Shown here: positions 8,274-13,430 of the stretch, in pieces
Position numbering within the stretch: the stretch's first letter is position 1
Layout of the letters: every line of letters starts with the position of its first letter
Assembly (NCBI RefSeq): GCF_900069005.2
Contig: NZ_LN831279.1
Span: 758,130 to 822,129 of the forward strand
DNA from: Paenibacillus sp. GM2
Lineage (GTDB): Bacteria; Bacillota; Bacilli; Paenibacillales; Paenibacillaceae
Direction: 5' to 3'
DNA length: 64,000 nt
Program-made: the position numbers and the translations under genes
Notes under the pieces: generated by a model
Seen by the model: only the letters and a program-made list of their open reading frames with translations
What the model was told of the DNA's origin: nothing
Database searches by the model: none

Positions 8274-9626
8274 ATGATCAGTTCAATTCGTTTATCTCGC
8301 TCTATGACAATGAAGGCGCTTACAACACTAGGGGTTATGCTGCTCACACTAATCGTTGTATTTCTGATTGCAGACAAGGCTTCTGCCCACGGTTATATCG
8401 ATGGTCCGGCGAGCCGGGGATATCTGTGTAAGACAGGACAAAATACGAATTGCGGAGCGATTCAGTATGAGCCGCAAAGTCTTGAAGCTCCAAAAGGCTT
8501 TCCGGCAGCCGGCCCAGCCGACGGGAAAATCGCCAGTGCGAATGGCGCCTTCCCTGAACTGGACCAGCAATCCGCTACACGTTGGACAAAAGTAAATATG
8601 TCTGCCGGAACAAACACTTTCCATTGGACACTGACTGCAGCCCATGCTACAACCAGTTGGAAGTATTATATCACAAAGGAGAACTGGAATCCGAATGCGG
8701 CGCTCACACGTGATTCATTCGATCTGACTCCATTCTGCTCCGTGAGTTATAATGGCACACAGCCACCGAATAGTTATTCCGACACTTGTAATGTTCCGCA
8801 ACGTTCGGGATATCATGTCATCCTCGCTGTTTGGGAGATCGCCGATACGCCTAATGCATTCTATAACGTGATCGATGTTAATTTCAGCGGAACAAACCCT
8901 GGCGACAGCCAGCCGCCAACCGCTCCGGCATCTCTCACAGCTGGTAACGTTACAGCCAACACAGTAACGCTCTCCTGGGGAGCCTCCTCCGATAATGTCG
9001 GTGTAACTGGCTATAATGTATATAACGGAAACACGCTGGTAGGCTCGGTGCCTGCTTCGACGCTGAGTTATACGGTAACTGGATTGACCGCGAACACGTC
9101 CTATACGTTTAATGTGAAGGCGGTTGATGCCGCAGGCAACCAGTCGAGCGCCAGCTCCGTTACTGTGAAGACGGGTCAGGCTGCAGCCGATAAAGAAGCG
9201 CCTACTGCGCCGGGCAATTTGCACGTAATGGGGACGCCCACTGCATCCAGCGTAGATCTGATGTGGAGTGCGTCCACGGACAATGTGGGTGTTACAGGCT
9301 ATCGTGTATACCAAGGGTCGAACCTGGTTGCTACCGTCTCTGGTTCGACAACTGATTATAAAGTGACCGGTCTGAATGCTAATACGTCTTATACATTCAC
9401 CGTATATGCTGTAGATGCCGCAGGCAATGTATCCGCGGCCAGCAATTCGGTTCAGGCAACTACAGCAGCAGCACCTGCCGCTCAGCCGTGGGCTGCAGGT
9501 GTCTCTTATGCAACAGGAGATCTGGTAAGCTATAACGGTTCGGTCTATGAATGCCGCCAACCGCATACTTCATTGGTTGGTTGGGAGCCTACCAACGTTC
9601 CTGCTCTCTGGCTGCTGAAGGCCTAA
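8274..9626 (+). CDS. Secreted AA10 lytic polysaccharide monooxygenase with two FnIII domains and a chitin-binding module
   Basis: This copper enzyme oxidatively cleaves crystalline chitin (or cellulose) outside the cell. A signal peptide ends at ASA, leaving His39 as the mature N-terminus ([14 protein letters not shown]), which with His124 ([16 protein letters not shown]) forms the copper histidine brace; Phe196 in NAFYNVID is the usual axial residue. Two fibronectin type III repeats follow (about 212-300 and 308-397, both with [13 protein letters not shown]), then a CBM5/12 module from about 405 ([22 protein letters not shown]). The 450-residue architecture is typical of Bacilli. The start ATG 8274 follows AAAGGAGG. 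A terminator lies after the stop. No chitinase gene is adjacent. Confidence 0.95.
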
Positions 9627-9703: not shown

Positions 9704-9830
9704 AGGTTGCCGAAAAATGAATGATTCAAAATTGAATATTTCAATTGTTCATAATCCGTTGTATGATGTAAAAGTTGAATTTAGGAATGGTTCAATAAAG
9801 AGCCATTTTATCATCAAAGGGGTGAGCATC

Positions 9831-10724
9831 ATGTCGTCATTATCGCGCTCTCGTACGATTTCATATCTGATCTTTCTCGTAATTATGTGGGGGGTTAACT
9901 GGCCGTTATCCAAATTTGCCCTGGAGTACACGCCACCGCTGCTATTCGCCGGTCTTCGGACCTTAATCGGGGGTGTTCTGCTTATACTGGTAGCTATTCC
10001 TAACTACAAGAAGCTGAATCTGCGCAGGAATTGGCCGCTGTATCTGCTCTCCTCGGTGCTGAACATCGTGCTGTACTATGGATTGCAGACGATCGGGCTG
10101 CAATATTTACCGGCTGGATTATTTTCCGCCATCGTATTTCTGCAGCCTGTATTGCTTGGTGTCTTCTCGTGGTTCTGGCTGGGAGAGTCTATGTATGGGA
10201 TGAAAATGGCTGGGCTGTTCCTTGGCTTCCTCGGTGTGTTCGAGATCAGCGCCGGCGGATTGGCCGGACATCCGTCGATCACCGGTGTACTGCTTGCACT
10301 GGGCAGTGCATTAAGCTGGGCTTTTGGCACCGTGTATATGAAGAAAACGACAGAACGGGTGGATATGGTCTGGATGGTGGCCTCGCAACTAACGCTGGGA
10401 GGACTGCTGCTGCTCGGAACGGGCAGTTATTTGGAGAAATGGAGCGATATTACGTGGAACATTCCTTTTATCAGCGTAATGCTCTTTATCGCTGTCTTCG
10501 TCATAGCTCTGGGCTGGCTCGTTTACTTTAAACTAATTGGTTCTGGGGAAGCGGGGAAGGTTGGTGCATTTACGTTCCTGATTCCGGTCATAGCCATTAT
10601 TTGCAGTGTTATTTTCCTAGGAGAGAATGTAACTTGGAACCTGGTCGCGGGATTAGGCATGATTGTCGTCAGCATCCTGCTGGTTAATATCAGGCCCGGT
10701 GCGCTTCGGCGGACAAGCGAATAA
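9831..10724 (+). CDS. EamA/DMT family exporter
   Basis: This 297-residue integral membrane protein has ten hydrophobic segments arranged as two EamA repeats (about 8-140 and 153-290). Members export small metabolites, often amino acids or purines; the substrate cannot be inferred here. The start is taken as ATG 9831 (MSSLSRSRTISYL) behind AAAGGGGTG. An open stretch upstream to 9717 is AT-rich, carries a small palindrome (TTGAATATTTCAA) and is likely promoter DNA. It is followed by 168 bases and then the Rrf2 gene, which has its own promoter-operator. Confidence 0.88.
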   Translation: MSSLSRSRTISYLIFLVIMWGVNWPLSKFALEYTPPLLFAGLRTLIGGVLLILVAIPNYKKLNLRRNWPLYLLSSVLNIVLYYGLQTIGLQYLPAGLFSAIVFLQPVLLGVFSWFWLGESMYGMKMAGLFLGFLGVFEISAGGLAGHPSITGVLLALGSALSWAFGTVYMKKTTERVDMVWMVASQLTLGGLLLLGTGSYLEKWSDITWNIPFISVMLFIAVFVIALGWLVYFKLIGSGEAGKVGAFTFLIPVIAIICSVIFLGENVTWNLVAGLGMIVVSILLVNIRPGALRRTSE

Positions 10725-10842
10725 TCTCTATCCTTTGGACATTACTGGGGTTGTGGCCGATTCCAGTAGTGCCCTCCCGGTCATTCGGGGCTATATGGGG
10801 GAAGAACCTGACACAAAAGTCGGGATTGCTTTGAGGCTTGAA

Positions 10843-10863
10843 ATTGTGCTAGAATATGCACAT
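10843..10863 (+). promoter_or_regulatory. Palindromic operator upstream of the Rrf2-type gene
   Basis: The palindrome GTGCTAGAATATGCAC (10846-10861) lies in the context AAATT...AT and overlaps a likely -10 (TAGAAT). It matches the site at 11313-11333 in 19 of 23 bases. Location ahead of the regulator gene suggests autoregulation. Confidence 0.65.
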
Positions 10864-10892
10864 TAAGATGCAGGCAAGGGCAGGAGGAAGCA

Positions 10893-11297
10893 ATGGCACA
10901 GTTAAAACGGTTTGGCTTCGGGTTGCAAGCGCTGATTGTACTTGCTGCAAACAATTCGGAACAATGCTCCAGCGCAGAGATCGCCGAACAGATTCAATGC
11001 GAACCAACTGTACTACGCAAAATTTTGGCTCAATTGGCTGAGCAGGGTATTGTAGAGGCCAGGCAGGGGCGTTCCGGAGGTTATCAATTAACGCGCAGTC
11101 CGGAACAAATTACGCTGGCTGAAGTCTATAAATCGCTCCATGAGAAGGAGCCGCAATGGGACCGGATGCTGGATACGACCGGGAACCATCTGTTTGGACA
11201 GAAGATGCATGAATCGTTCTCGAAAATTATGACCGATATCAATACACAAGTGAACCAGGTGCTGGGAACGTATACGGTAGGGGATTTCTTAGACTAA
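10893..11297 (+). CDS. Rrf2 family transcriptional regulator
   Basis: The 134-residue protein has the Rrf2 winged helix-turn-helix at residues ~8-75 (SAEIAEQIQCEPTVLRKILAQLAEQGIVEARQGRSGGYQLTRSP), including the RSGGY wing motif. The three closely spaced cysteines that hold an Fe-S cluster in IscR and NsrR are absent; only Cys25 and Cys35 are present, so it is more like the CymR/YwnA-type apo-regulators. RBS AGGAGG precedes ATG 10893. A palindrome lies upstream, and a near-identical one lies before the next gene, so it probably represses itself and the downstream AbrB/YecD pair. The ligand is unknown. Confidence 0.9.
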   Translation: MAQLKRFGFGLQALIVLAANNSEQCSSAEIAEQIQCEPTVLRKILAQLAEQGIVEARQGRSGGYQLTRSPEQITLAEVYKSLHEKEPQWDRMLDTTGNHLFGQKMHESFSKIMTDINTQVNQVLGTYTVGDFLD

Positions 11298-11312
11298 ATT
11301 TTTTTGGACTAA

Positions 11313-11333
11313 ATTGTGCTATAAATAGCACAT
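11313..11333 (+). promoter_or_regulatory. Palindromic operator upstream of the AbrB-type gene
   Basis: The perfect palindrome arms GTGCTAT/ATAGCAC (11316-11331) sit in the same flanks (AAATT before, AT after) as the site upstream of the Rrf2 gene. The shared sequence is the natural candidate binding site for the Rrf2 protein encoded between them. Confidence 0.7.
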
Positions 11334-11404
11334 ATAGTATTCTCCTCCGGTTCTGGATGCTTTTGATATAGAGAGACTAGAAGAATTGAGATGGAGGTGA
11401 GTGC

Positions 11405-12520
11405 ATGATGAAACTTGTCGGCCGGAGCCGTTATGCCCGTATTATAGCATCGCTGGTCACAGCGCTAATCGGAGGGATTTTGTTCAAGCTGCTGCATCTG
11501 CCTGTGCCTTGGCTGCTGGGTCCGATGCTGGCGGTGTTAGTCGGTTCTAATCTCATGGAGGACCGCTATGAATGGCCACAGCAGTTCAGAAGTATAGGCA
11601 TGGTCATCGTCGGCTACACGATCGGTCTGTCTATGACGCTGACCGCGCTAAGACAGATGTCCCACCAGCTTCCCTATATGCTGCTCATGACAGTCCTGTT
11701 GCTGCTGTTATGCTCAGGTATTGCTTATATAAATTCCAGATTATCAGGCATCGACTACAATTCTGCGCTGCTTGGAAGCATTCCCGGGGGGCTTACTCAA
11801 GTGATCTCTCTCGCCGAGGAGACGGAGGGAATTAATCTTCTTGCGGTTATGATAACGCAGGTGATTCGTCTAATTATGATTATCGTCATTATTCCGCTGC
11901 TCGTGTTCAGTCCCTTCTTCGCTCACGGACATGGGGATACGACCGCTGCAATTCCTTCAACAATAGCGACAGCGACCCATAGCAGCAATCCGCTTATTAT
12001 GCTCTTGTTTGCTGTTGTCTGTATTGCGGGAGCATTTTTGGGCAAGAGGATTCATTTGCCGACTCCGCTATTACTGGGGCCCGTTATTGCAACAGCCACC
12101 TTGCAGCTGCTCGGTATAACCGGTATGGCTCTGCCGGGCTGGATCATTAACACCGCACAGCTGCTAATTGGCGTAAATGTCGGTTTGATGCTGAAACCGG
12201 GCCGCATGGAGCATAAGTTCAGAACCATATCCATCGCCATAGGCTGCGGGCTCTTGCTGGTAGTTGGAGCCTGGGGCCTCAGCTTGCTGCTTGTCTATGT
12301 TCAATCCGTCTCCGGAGCGACGGCTCTCTTAAGCCTGGCTCCAGGGGGAATGGACCAGATGGGGATTATAGCTCATGAGATTGGTGCAGATTTGGCTATA
12401 GTTGCCGGATATCAATTATTTAGAACATTCTTTATTATGTTTGCCATACCGCCTTTAGTTCGTCTATTGTTCCGGATTCAGAAGAAGAAAAAAACGATTA
12501 AACAAGGAGAGATTGTATGA
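11405..12520 (+). CDS. AbrB family (PF05145, AmoA-like) membrane protein
   Basis: Despite the family name, this 371-residue protein is an integral membrane protein, not the transition-state regulator AbrB. It has two homologous halves rich in hydrophobic segments, with the family motif PWLLGPMLAVLVGSN near residue 36 and its counterpart PTPLLLGPVIATATLQLLG near 220, plus SLAPGGMDQMG near 312. Function in the family is poorly known; transport is suspected. RBS ATGGAGGTGAG precedes ATG 11405 (a second ATG follows at once). Its stop overlaps the next start (ATGA), so it is co-translated with the hydrolase. Likely control is by the Rrf2 protein. Confidence 0.85.
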   Translation: MMKLVGRSRYARIIASLVTALIGGILFKLLHLPVPWLLGPMLAVLVGSNLMEDRYEWPQQFRSIGMVIVGYTIGLSMTLTALRQMSHQLPYMLLMTVLLLLLCSGIAYINSRLSGIDYNSALLGSIPGGLTQVISLAEETEGINLLAVMITQVIRLIMIIVIIPLLVFSPFFAHGHGDTTAAIPSTIATATHSSNPLIMLLFAVVCIAGAFLGKRIHLPTPLLLGPVIATATLQLLGITGMALPGWIINTAQLLIGVNVGLMLKPGRMEHKFRTISIAIGCGLLLVVGAWGLSLLLVYVQSVSGATALLSLAPGGMDQMGIIAHEIGADLAIVAGYQLFRTFFIMFAIPPLVRLLFRIQKKKKTIKQGEIV

Positions 12521-13092
12521 GCGCGTTAAACGTTGATTTCAGTAAAACGGCATTGGTTCTGATCGACTTGCAGAAGGGGATCACGAAGATGTTTGACGGT
12601 ACCCAAGAGGTCGTGGATCAGGCGGCGAGACTGGTCGAGCTGTTCCGCCAAAAGGGCGGCTTTATCGCATTTGTAAAGGTGGCGTTCCATGACGGCCGCG
12701 ACGCCTTGAAGCCGACGACCGATATGCCGCCGGCTCCTGCCAGGCCTATTCCGGCGGATTGGGCAGAACTTGCTCCTGAATTGGGCGTAAGCGGACAGGA
12801 CTATGTCGTCACCAAACGCCAATGGGGAGCCTTTTTTGGTACAGACCTGGATCTGCAGCTTCGTCGCCGGGGTGTCGACACAATTGTCCTGTGCGGAGTA
12901 TCCACAAACATCGGTGTCGAAGGAACAGCAAGAGAAGCATACCAGCATGGGTATAACCAAATCTTGATTACTGATGCGATGGCCGCTGCTTCCGAGGAAG
13001 AACATCAATTGAGCTGTAAATATATTTTCCCAAGAATCGGCAAATTGAGAACGACAGAGGAATTTATTGCGGAAGCCGGGCGTGGGGATTAA
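12517..13092 (+). CDS. YecD-like isochorismatase-superfamily hydrolase without catalytic Cys
   Basis: The 191-residue cytoplasmic protein has the superfamily Asp17 (LVLIDLQKGI) and Lys100 (VVTKRQWGAFFGTDLD), but at the nucleophile position reads STNIGVEGTAR, with Gly133 where cysteine hydrolases have Cys. The same GVSTNIGVE pattern is found in E. coli YecD, and siderophore isochorismatases also lack the Cys, so the reaction is probably not nicotinamidase-like amide hydrolysis. The natural substrate is unknown. It overlaps the AbrB-type gene by four bases and closes that operon before a long hairpin terminator. Confidence 0.88.
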   Translation: MSALNVDFSKTALVLIDLQKGITKMFDGTQEVVDQAARLVELFRQKGGFIAFVKVAFHDGRDALKPTTDMPPAPARPIPADWAELAPELGVSGQDYVVTKRQWGAFFGTDLDLQLRRRGVDTIVLCGVSTNIGVEGTAREAYQHGYNQILITDAMAAASEEEHQLSCKYIFPRIGKLRTTEEFIAEAGRGD

Positions 13093-13105: not shown

Positions 13106-13151
13106 AAAATCACCGCGGATATGGAAAATGCATATCCGCGTAAGTGATTTT
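13106..13151. terminator. Bidirectional terminator between convergent genes
   Basis: Arms AAAATCAC / GTGATTTT enclose a second stem GCGGATAT / ATATCCGC. The T and A runs on both sides suit termination of both the YecD-like gene and the minus-strand gene that ends at 13173. Confidence 0.8.
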
Positions 13152-13172: not shown

Positions 13173-13430
13173 TTATTGCGCTCCAAGTAGAGCGGATTTC
13201 ACAGAGCTGCCATCTGAAGTTAAGCGATACATGCCTATTACAACGGGATTAACCTGAACCAACCCTTTGCTTGCCAAATCTTTAAGGGGCTGATTTACCG
13301 AAGAAGTATCCTCACTTGCATTTGATAGTTGGGCAGCAAGCTGTATCGGAGTCTGCCACTCCGTGGTTAAGACGAGCAACACTTCCTGTTGCAGGGGAGT
13401 TAAATTCACACTGATAACCTCCTCGATCAA
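13173..13430 (-). CDS. Small winged-helix-like protein
   Basis: This 85-residue protein has a pattern like a MarR/HTH fold: LTPLQQEVLLVLTTEWQTPIQLAAQLSNASEDTSSVNQPLKDLASKGLVQV followed by a wing-like MYRLTSDG. The start ATG 13430 has GGAGG upstream (TCGAGGAGGTTATC reading in the gene direction overlaps the first codons). It may be a small regulator, but I know no named family. Its promoter faces the tRNA-Ala region. Confidence 0.7.
   Translation of the reverse strand: MIEEVISVNLTPLQQEVLLVLTTEWQTPIQLAAQLSNASEDTSSVNQPLKDLASKGLVQVNPVVIGMYRLTSDGSSVKSALLGAQ

What the first reader, a model, noticed from the sequence alone, without database searches (positions are those of the whole stretch)
10843..12520. 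One palindrome, two promoters: likely autoregulated Rrf2 switch for an AbrB-type membrane protein and YecD-like hydrolase
GTGCTAGAATATGCAC before the Rrf2 gene and GTGCTATAAATAGCAC before the AbrB-type gene share 23-base contexts with four mismatches. They flank exactly the regulator gene. This gives a testable operator for a regulator without Fe-S cysteines, controlling two genes of unknown physiological role.
Basis: partly seen in the sequence, partly recalled or inferred. Interest (0 to 1): 0.6.

Follow-up and report, generated by a model that had tools for sequence, protein, structure and literature searches.

The report
Self-regulating Rrf2 switch with shared operator
A small DNA-binding protein in Paenibacillus-type soil bacteria appears to switch off both its own gene and a neighbouring transporter-and-enzyme operon by binding the same short palindrome in front of each, and the same palindrome has followed one of the enzyme genes to another place in some relatives, which gives an unstudied regulator a concrete, testable set of targets.

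Summary
The two palindromes are TGTGC-N8-GCACA at 10845-10862 and 11315-11332, two of only four exact matches in the 5.85-Mb genome. In 35 orthologous Paenibacillaceae loci, site 1 is kept (at least 9/10 fixed bases) in 35 of 35, over the -10 of the rrf2 promoter; site 2 in 32 of 35. In the three without site 2, the next gene follows rrf2 directly. Site 2 precedes the first gene of the downstream unit, whether AbrB-type or an inserted metallo-beta-lactamase-fold (MBL) gene. Where the MBL gene lies elsewhere, 4 of 5 genomes carry the operator before it. Of 20 similar AbrB-type genes in genomes lacking the close regulator, none has the site. A sister clade beside nitroreductase genes has an exact site in 8 of 18. 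The operator differs from the known Rrf2 box TGTAA-N9-TTACA (PMC9218516). Corrections: the AbrB-type protein models as an elevator-type transporter; the hydrolase is optional (11 of 35). The signal is unknown; electrophile or quinone sensing is inference. No binding or expression was measured.

The parts
10826..10855 (+). promoter of the rrf2 gene: TTGCTT (10826-10831), 18-nt spacer, TAGAAT (10850-10855), with TG one base before the -10
   Evidence: sequence; TTG starts 17-19 nt before the operator in 33 of 35 orthologous loci, hexamer inside the operator is TAnnAT in 33 of 35. The generic scanner did not list it.
10845..10862 (.). operator 1, TGTGC-TAGAATAT-GCACA, covering the -10 of the rrf2 promoter
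   Evidence: kept at 9/10 or better in 35 of 35 loci
10893..11297 (+). Rrf2-family regulator, 134 aa, winged helix-turn-helix plus dimerisation helix; cysteines C25 and C36 only
   Evidence: PF02082 1.4e-28; TIGR00738 above cut-off; model pLDDT 84.6
11299..11305 (+). run of seven T just upstream of operator 2; a run of 6 or more T is present in 25 of 32 loci with site 2; role unknown
11310..11315 (+). -10-like TAAATT overlapping the first base of operator 2; TAAA at this place in 22 of 32 loci; no clear -35
11315..11332 (.). operator 2, TGTGC-TATAAATA-GCACA, before the AbrB-type gene
   Evidence: kept at 9/10 or better in 32 of 35 loci
11405..12520 (+). AbrB-type membrane protein (PF05145), 371 aa, predicted elevator-type transporter
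   Evidence: PF05145 3.9e-80; TIGR03082; model matches AspT Z 24.3 and CitS Z 21.6; present in 35 of 35 loci
12517..13092 (+). YecD-like isochorismatase-superfamily hydrolase, 191 aa, overlapping the AbrB-type gene by 4 nt
   Evidence: PF00857; PRK11440 model 200.7 bits against cut-off 195; 11 of 35 loci
13114..13140 (.). inverted repeat after the hydrolase gene, listed as terminator-like on the minus strand; possible end of the unit

Best explanation
An autoregulated, local repressor switch. An Rrf2 dimer recognises TGTGC-N8-GCACA. At site 1 it sits on the extended -10 of its own promoter, at site 2 on the -10/start region of the promoter of the AbrB-type transporter and hydrolase genes, so it represses both. 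An unidentified signal releases it; the transporter and the enzyme are then made, and the regulator resets itself. The operator-regulator pairing and the targets are supported by comparative genomics; dimer binding, repression and release are inferred. The signal is most likely a small reactive or aromatic compound (quinone- or electrophile-like), a guess from the company of the operator: a nitroreductase in the sister clade, an FMN reductase and NAD(P)-binding and MBL-fold enzymes in relatives.
For: Site 1 at 9/10 or better in 35 of 35 orthologous loci (28 clusters at 95% protein identity) and site 2 in 32 of 35, with nearly invariant TGTGC/GCACA arms. The three loci without site 2 (L068, L069, L073) have the next gene starting within about 15 nt of the rrf2 stop, as expected if operator 1 then serves the whole unit. 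Site 2 stays with the first downstream gene whether it is AbrB-type or MBL. In genus g15, 4 of 5 distal MBL genes have the operator 26-30 nt before the start codon; in g16, 3 of 5 carriers have it 20-33 nt before an FMN reductase gene. AbrB-type genes of like similarity in genomes without a close ortholog of the regulator: 0 of 20. Twenty other off-locus exact matches that I looked at in carriers all lie inside ORFs. At site 2 the arms persist where the TATAAT-like core is lost, so this is not merely a shared -10. The same kind of look finds the published TGTAA-N9-TTACA box before 6 of 6 HypR genes.
Against: No binding or expression data. G316 has a distal MBL gene without the operator (L145). 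Site 1 of the window is an imperfect palindrome (5 of 9 pairs). No -35 is evident at site 2. The nature of the signal is unsupported by direct evidence; two orthologs (L076, L077) have no cysteine at all yet keep both operators, which speaks against an obligatory thiol switch. In the distant clade 6 of 18 loci have no site of 9/10. An activator role at site 2 is not excluded.
Confidence: 0.85

Rival explanations
1. The two palindromes are only similar extended -10 promoter elements (TGnTATAAT) with chance symmetry, not operators.
For: Site 1 does contain an extended -10 with a TTG starting 17-19 nt before the operator in 33 of 35 loci.
Against: The downstream GCACA arm is kept or nearly so in 35 loci and has no promoter role; at site 2 the arms persist while the TATAAT-like core is replaced (for example GCAAAAAAATGC); absent before 20 of 20 AbrB-type genes without the close regulator.
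Confidence: 0.03
2. The palindrome is the site of another regulator that merely shares the neighbourhood with Rrf2.
For: No direct binding data; comparative evidence shows association only.
Against: The site tracks presence of the rrf2 gene (35 of 35 loci against 0 of 20) and its sister clade (8 of 18 with an exact site, 12 of 18 at 9/10 or better); Rrf2 proteins HypR and SifR bind TGT-type palindromes of nearly the same length (PMC9218516). FNR/CRP- and Rex-type boxes have a shorter N6 gap (recalled).
Confidence: 0.06
3. Rrf2 acts as an activator, or as repressor of itself and activator of the downstream unit.
For: No -35 is evident at site 2, and some Rrf2 proteins (IscR) activate (recalled).
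Against: Operator 1 covers the -10 and operator 2 overlaps a -10-like element and probably the start, positions that block polymerase rather than recruit it; fused loci place the transporter gene behind site 1.
Confidence: 0.08

Closest known systems
SifR of Streptococcus pneumoniae and YwnA of Bacillus subtilis (Rrf2 monothiol quinone sensors; PMC9218516: abstract, section 4 and passages seen)
   Same: Rrf2 fold without Fe-S ligands; repressor of a small regulon with NAD(P)H-dependent and FMN-dependent reductases; short TGT-type palindrome as operator
   Different: Operator TGTAA-N9-TTACA instead of TGTGC-N8-GCACA; SifR's cysteine is at the N-cap of helix 5 in HxxPNPxC, absent here; no AbrB-type or YecD-like target named in the parts seen
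HypR of Staphylococcus aureus (Rrf2 dithiol hypochlorite sensor; known here through PMC9218516 only, the original paper is not held)
   Same: Best-scoring named NCBIfam equivalog (57.8 bits); palindrome before its own gene, seen here in 6 of 6 HypR-family genes; a cysteine next to the turn of the HTH
   Different: Far below the 180-bit cut-off; operator TGTAA-N9-TTACA; C33 aligns one residue before C36; no second cysteine in the dimerisation part
AspT aspartate:alanine antiporter and CitS citrate symporter (elevator transporters)
   Same: Fold of the AbrB-type model: Z 24.3 over 333 residues, rmsd 3.7 (AspT) and 21.6 over 343, rmsd 4.3 (CitS)
   Different: 14% and 9% sequence identity; chain lengths 371 against 543 (AspT); substrate unknown

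Membership tests
Rrf2 family (PF02082) | match above the curated family threshold | tested here: met
   100.1 bits against 30; TIGR00738 82.7 against 73.3
Rrf2 family (PF02082) | winged HTH with RGxxGG-type wing tip and long dimerisation helix | tested here: met
   model: helices 2-19, 27-34, 38-50, strands 54-57 and 63-66, helix 99-124; QGRSGGY in the sequence
Fe-S Rrf2 regulators (IscR, NsrR, RirA) | cysteine ligands in the connector / helix 5 region | tested here: not met
   only C25 and C36 in the window protein; in 35 loci no cysteine beyond position 36 except position 67 of L075
HypR (NF041852) | curated cut-off of 180 bits | tested here: not met
   57.8 bits
HypR (NF041852) | redox pair C33/C99 | tested here: not met
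   C36 aligns one residue after C33; no equivalent of C99; the pair is as given in PMC9218516
SifR/YwnA quinone sensors | single cysteine in HxxPNPxC at the N-cap of helix 5 | tested here: not met
   no cysteine after residue 36; motif taken from PMC9218516
SifR/YwnA quinone sensors | release from DNA by quinone adduct | not testable with these tools
   needs purified protein
SifR/HypR operator class | TGTAA-N9-TTACA | tested here: not met
   the conserved sites here are TGTGC-N8-GCACA; no separate scan for the TGTAA box was made in the window
AbrB membrane family (PF05145) | match above gathering score | tested here: met
   269.6 bits against 29.2; duplicated TIGR03082 unit
AspT/CitS-type elevator transporters | shared fold | tested here: inconclusive
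   Z 24.3 (AspT) and 21.6 (CitS) over most of the model; fold does not prove transport
YecD-like hydrolases (PRK11440) | curated cut-off of 195 bits | tested here: met
   200.7 bits, only just above

The most novel reading that the evidence does not exclude
This is a separate, undescribed branch of Rrf2 sensors with its own operator code (TGTGC-N8-GCACA) and a sensing cysteine placed in the turn of the helix-turn-helix (C36), at the DNA rather than in the dimerisation part. It would control detoxification and export of a reactive aromatic or organic anion by an AbrB-type elevator exporter together with interchangeable enzymes (MBL-fold, YecD-like, NAD(P)-binding, FMN reductase), with a sister branch that controls nitroreductases.
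Probability: 0.25. Interest if true: 0.65.

Novelty: new variant of a known kind. Interest (0 to 1): 0.5.

Why it matters
Several large groups of Rrf2 regulators are still uncharacterised (PMC9218516, section 4). Here one subfamily gets an operator, a -10-occluding geometry, a core target of unknown function (PF05145, which Pfam still calls 'Transition state regulatory protein AbrB') with a transporter-like fold, and optional enzyme partners that narrow what the signal could be. It turns two orphan gene families into a testable stress or transport circuit. It does not change how such regulators are thought to work in general.

Tried and rejected
Loose pattern search in the window did not separate the sites from chance; the exact core did. 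My first genome pattern was one base too long and missed the real sites; replaced. A shared extended -10 as the whole explanation was rejected. A thiol switch at C36 as a firm claim was dropped: L076 and L077 have no cysteine yet keep both operators, and 17 of 18 distant-clade proteins have serine there. A terminator role for the T run before site 2 was considered; in L018 it stays with the operator 337 nt after the rrf2 stop, so it is left unexplained. A wider regulon was looked for. In 19 carriers, 27 sites with A/T centre are at the locus and 23 elsewhere: 5 before the MBL gene in 4 genomes, 3 before the FMN reductase gene in 3 genomes, 11 inside ORFs, 1 over an ORF end (L132), and 3 single-genome sites: before a CorA-like gene (L129), at a DUF1232-like gene start (L126), and between genes (L133); names by eye, not followed up. 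Some exact matches with G/C-richer spacers recur in two or three genomes; the 20 off-locus matches, these among them, all lie in ORFs of at least 100 aa. The remaining off-locus matches were not all looked at. Rex and CRP/FNR boxes were set aside from recall (N6 gap). L024 (Geobacteraceae, 32% identity) was dropped from the counts: no GTGC..GCAC site found in it. Loci L029-L058 were re-fetched with wider flanks or duplicate named loci, and were not counted twice, which read minus-strand loci in the wrong orientation, was superseded. Paper searches: Rrf2 family with Paenibacillus and isochorismatase (none), with HypR, operator and Cys33 (none), Rrf2 with HypR (20 of 23 listed), with nitroreductase and inverted repeat, with Paenibacillus, with SaiR, with quinone, repressor or isochorismatase (15 of 51 listed), with RegPrecise; AbrB family transporter (none); YbgN with aidB (none). 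Of these only PMC9218516 was opened; the rest were seen as listings, and none is on this system by its title.

Full report
WHAT IS THERE. The window carries, on the + strand, an EamA-type transporter gene (ORF 9717-10724, start possibly 9834), an Rrf2-family gene (10893-11297), an AbrB-type (PF05145) membrane protein gene (11405-12520) and a YecD-like isochorismatase-superfamily hydrolase gene (12517-13092) that overlaps it by four bases. The two palindromes are TGTGC-N8-GCACA at 10845-10862 and 11315-11332.

MORE THAN CHANCE. A loose pattern with two mismatches does not stand out in the window (13 against 12.2 expected). The exact core does: 2 in the window against a mean of 0.05 in 300 Markov sequences and 4 in the 5.85-Mb genome, two of them these.

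CONSERVATION. A scan of named genomes gave 12 close orthologs, 66-98% identical, all Paenibacillus or Cohnella, and one distant match (L024), which I dropped. A search of 394 genomes of the family found the subfamily in 124 at E of 1e-30 or better: 30 genomes with close orthologs (194 bits or more), three intermediate (G155, G057, G075), the rest a distant clade. In a sample of 398 genomes of the class, 14 match at 1e-25 or better; only the window's own genome among them has a close ortholog, and only two of the 14 lie outside the family. I assembled 35 distinct loci (window, L012-L023, L059-L080; 28 clusters at 95% protein identity). Site 1 scores at least 9 of the 10 fixed bases in 35 of 35 (10 of 10), with its first base 44-54 nt before the start codon; site 2 does so in 32 of 35 (10 of 10). 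In site-centred alignments most arm columns have 1.6 to 2 bits (one column of site 2 has 1.2); most flanking columns have 0 to 0.3, apart from the -35 TTG, the A/T-rich flanks next to the arms, the T run before site 2 and the ribosome-binding region after site 1.

GEOMETRY. At site 1 a TTG starts 17-19 nt before the operator in 33 of 35 loci and the hexamer after TGTGC is of the form TAnnAT in 33 of 35 (TAAAAT, TATAAT, TAGAAT and the like). So the operator sits on the -10 of a sigma-A-type promoter with TG one base upstream. At site 2 the core is often no longer a -10 (for example AAAAAAAT) while the arms stay; TAAA precedes the arm in 22 of 32, which reads as a -10 about one helical turn further upstream, although TAAA may also be part of an extended operator, since A-rich bases flank site 1 too. 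No -35 is evident there. A run of six or more T lies just upstream in 25 of 32; I cannot explain it.

NATURAL EXPERIMENTS. (a) The three loci without site 2 are ones where the next gene follows rrf2 within about 15 nt (L068 and L069: the AbrB-type gene; L073: the MBL-fold gene); there operator 1 would serve the whole unit. (b) The AbrB-type gene is present in 35 of 35 loci, an MBL-fold (PF13483) gene in 21 (one of them, L064, has lost its middle), the YecD-like gene in 11 and an NAD(P)-binding epimerase-like gene in 4. When the MBL-fold gene stands between, site 2 is in front of it. (c) In genus g15 the MBL-fold gene is elsewhere in the genome; in 4 of 5 genomes (G303, G305, G308, G315) the operator lies 26-30 nt before its start codon, with a second copy 28 bp further up in G308; in G316 it does not, and G318 has no such gene. 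Over 25 MBL-fold genes found in 33 carriers, 23 have a site of 9/10 or better; the exceptions are G316 and the fused locus of G246. (d) In g16, 3 of 5 carriers (G332, G334, G351) have the operator 20-33 nt before an NADPH-dependent FMN reductase-like gene (named from its sequence, not scanned against a library); in the other two I saw no exact site of this kind and did not look for the gene. (e) Negative control: 20 AbrB-type genes of 55-62% identity in genomes without a close ortholog of the regulator (the best-scoring such genes, leaving out G177, which lies at a contig end): 0 of 20 has a site of 9/10 or better in about 3 kb upstream. At least five of those genomes carry the distant clade. 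(f) Of exact sites in 14 carrier genomes listed in full, 22 of 25 at the locus have a spacer with 7 or more A/T, 0 of 48 elsewhere; in 20 non-carriers of the genus 4 of 38 do. In 19 further carriers, searched with a pattern that demands an A/T centre, 23 sites lie off the locus: 5 before the MBL gene, 3 before the FMN reductase gene, 11 inside ORFs, 1 over an ORF end, 3 single-genome sites near or between gene starts. Twenty off-locus exact matches from both lists were checked and all lie in ORFs of at least 100 aa.

SISTER CLADE. Of the distant clade I fetched 18 loci, the best-scoring ones, not a random sample. 17 stand before a nitroreductase (PF00881) gene and one (L082) before an MBL-fold gene. 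After rrf2, 8 of 18 have an exact TGTGC-N8-GCACA and 12 of 18 a site of 9/10 or better; 6 have none. Site 1 is not kept: none of the 18 has a site of 9/10 before rrf2, and by eye several have another palindrome there, AACTGTG..CACAGTT-like. The 17 nitroreductase-linked ones form a clade with 100/100 support (the bootstrap had not fully settled, and the tree leaves the close orthologs unresolved around it).

THE PROTEINS. The regulator is a standard Rrf2 winged helix-turn-helix with a dimerisation helix (model pLDDT 84.6). It lacks the Fe-S ligands. C36 lies in the turn before the recognition helix (helix 38-50); it is present in 30 of 32 close orthologs and 3 of 3 intermediate ones, but L076 and L077 have no cysteine and keep their operators, and 17 of 18 distant proteins have serine. 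In an alignment with four HypR-family proteins, HypR's C33 falls one residue earlier. TGTAA-N9-TTACA, the box that PMC9218516 gives for HypR and SifR, lies before 6 of 6 HypR-family genes, so the same kind of look recovers a known case. The AbrB-type protein models (pLDDT 78.9) as an elevator-type transporter, closest to AspT (Z 24.3, 333 residues, rmsd 3.7) and CitS (Z 21.6); Foldseek's first matches were NapA and CitS at TM about 0.5. 'AbrB' here is thus not the DNA-binding AbrB of Bacillus (recalled).

MECHANISM. Shown by comparison: the operator belongs to this regulator's neighbourhood and targets, and occupies the rrf2 -10. Inferred: dimer binding, repression by occlusion, autoregulation, release by a signal. 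The signal is open. The company of nitroreductase, FMN reductase, NAD(P)-binding and MBL-fold enzymes resembles the quinone regulon of SifR (PMC9218516, abstract, section 4 and passages seen), hence the guess of an electrophilic or aromatic compound exported or taken up by the AbrB-type transporter.

STANDING. It is a member of the Rrf2 family by tested features, not a HypR, SifR or Fe-S regulator. The operator differs in half-site and spacing from the one described. No paper on it turned up in the listings, two of which were cut short. I rate it a new variant of a known kind: well supported, useful, not a new kind of mechanism.

Noticed in passing
L081-L098 (distant clade): A sister clade of the regulator stands before a nitroreductase gene in 17 of 18 fetched loci; by eye several have an AACTGTG..CACAGTT-like palindrome before rrf2 and TGTGC-N8-GCACA before the nitroreductase gene, that is two different palindromes in one locus.
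   Followed up: partly
11299-11305 and the same place in 25 of 32 loci: A run of six or more T just upstream of operator 2 that stays with the operator even when it lies 337 nt from the rrf2 stop (L018); role unknown.
   Followed up: partly
L124, 2486-2531 (G308): Two exact operators 28 bp apart before a distal MBL-fold gene.
   Followed up: no
L064, within about 400 nt after the rrf2 stop (G277): The MBL-fold gene between operator 2 and the AbrB-type gene has lost its middle part while the operator is kept.
   Followed up: no
L012, 4519-5633 (Paenibacillus sp. D2_2): The AbrB-type gene is split into two overlapping ORFs, a frameshift in the gene or in the sequence.
   Followed up: no
L014, L016, L021, L022 (site 2 region): A degenerate second copy of the palindrome (8 of 10) overlaps operator 2 with an offset of exactly 10 bp, as if two dimers could bind side by side.
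   Followed up: no
13173-13430 (minus strand): An 85-aa ORF without a Pfam match, convergent with the hydrolase gene.
   Followed up: no
8274-9626: A 450-aa secreted-looking protein, by eye a chitin-active LPMO-like domain with two Fn3-like repeats and a carbohydrate-binding end; not searched.
   Followed up: no
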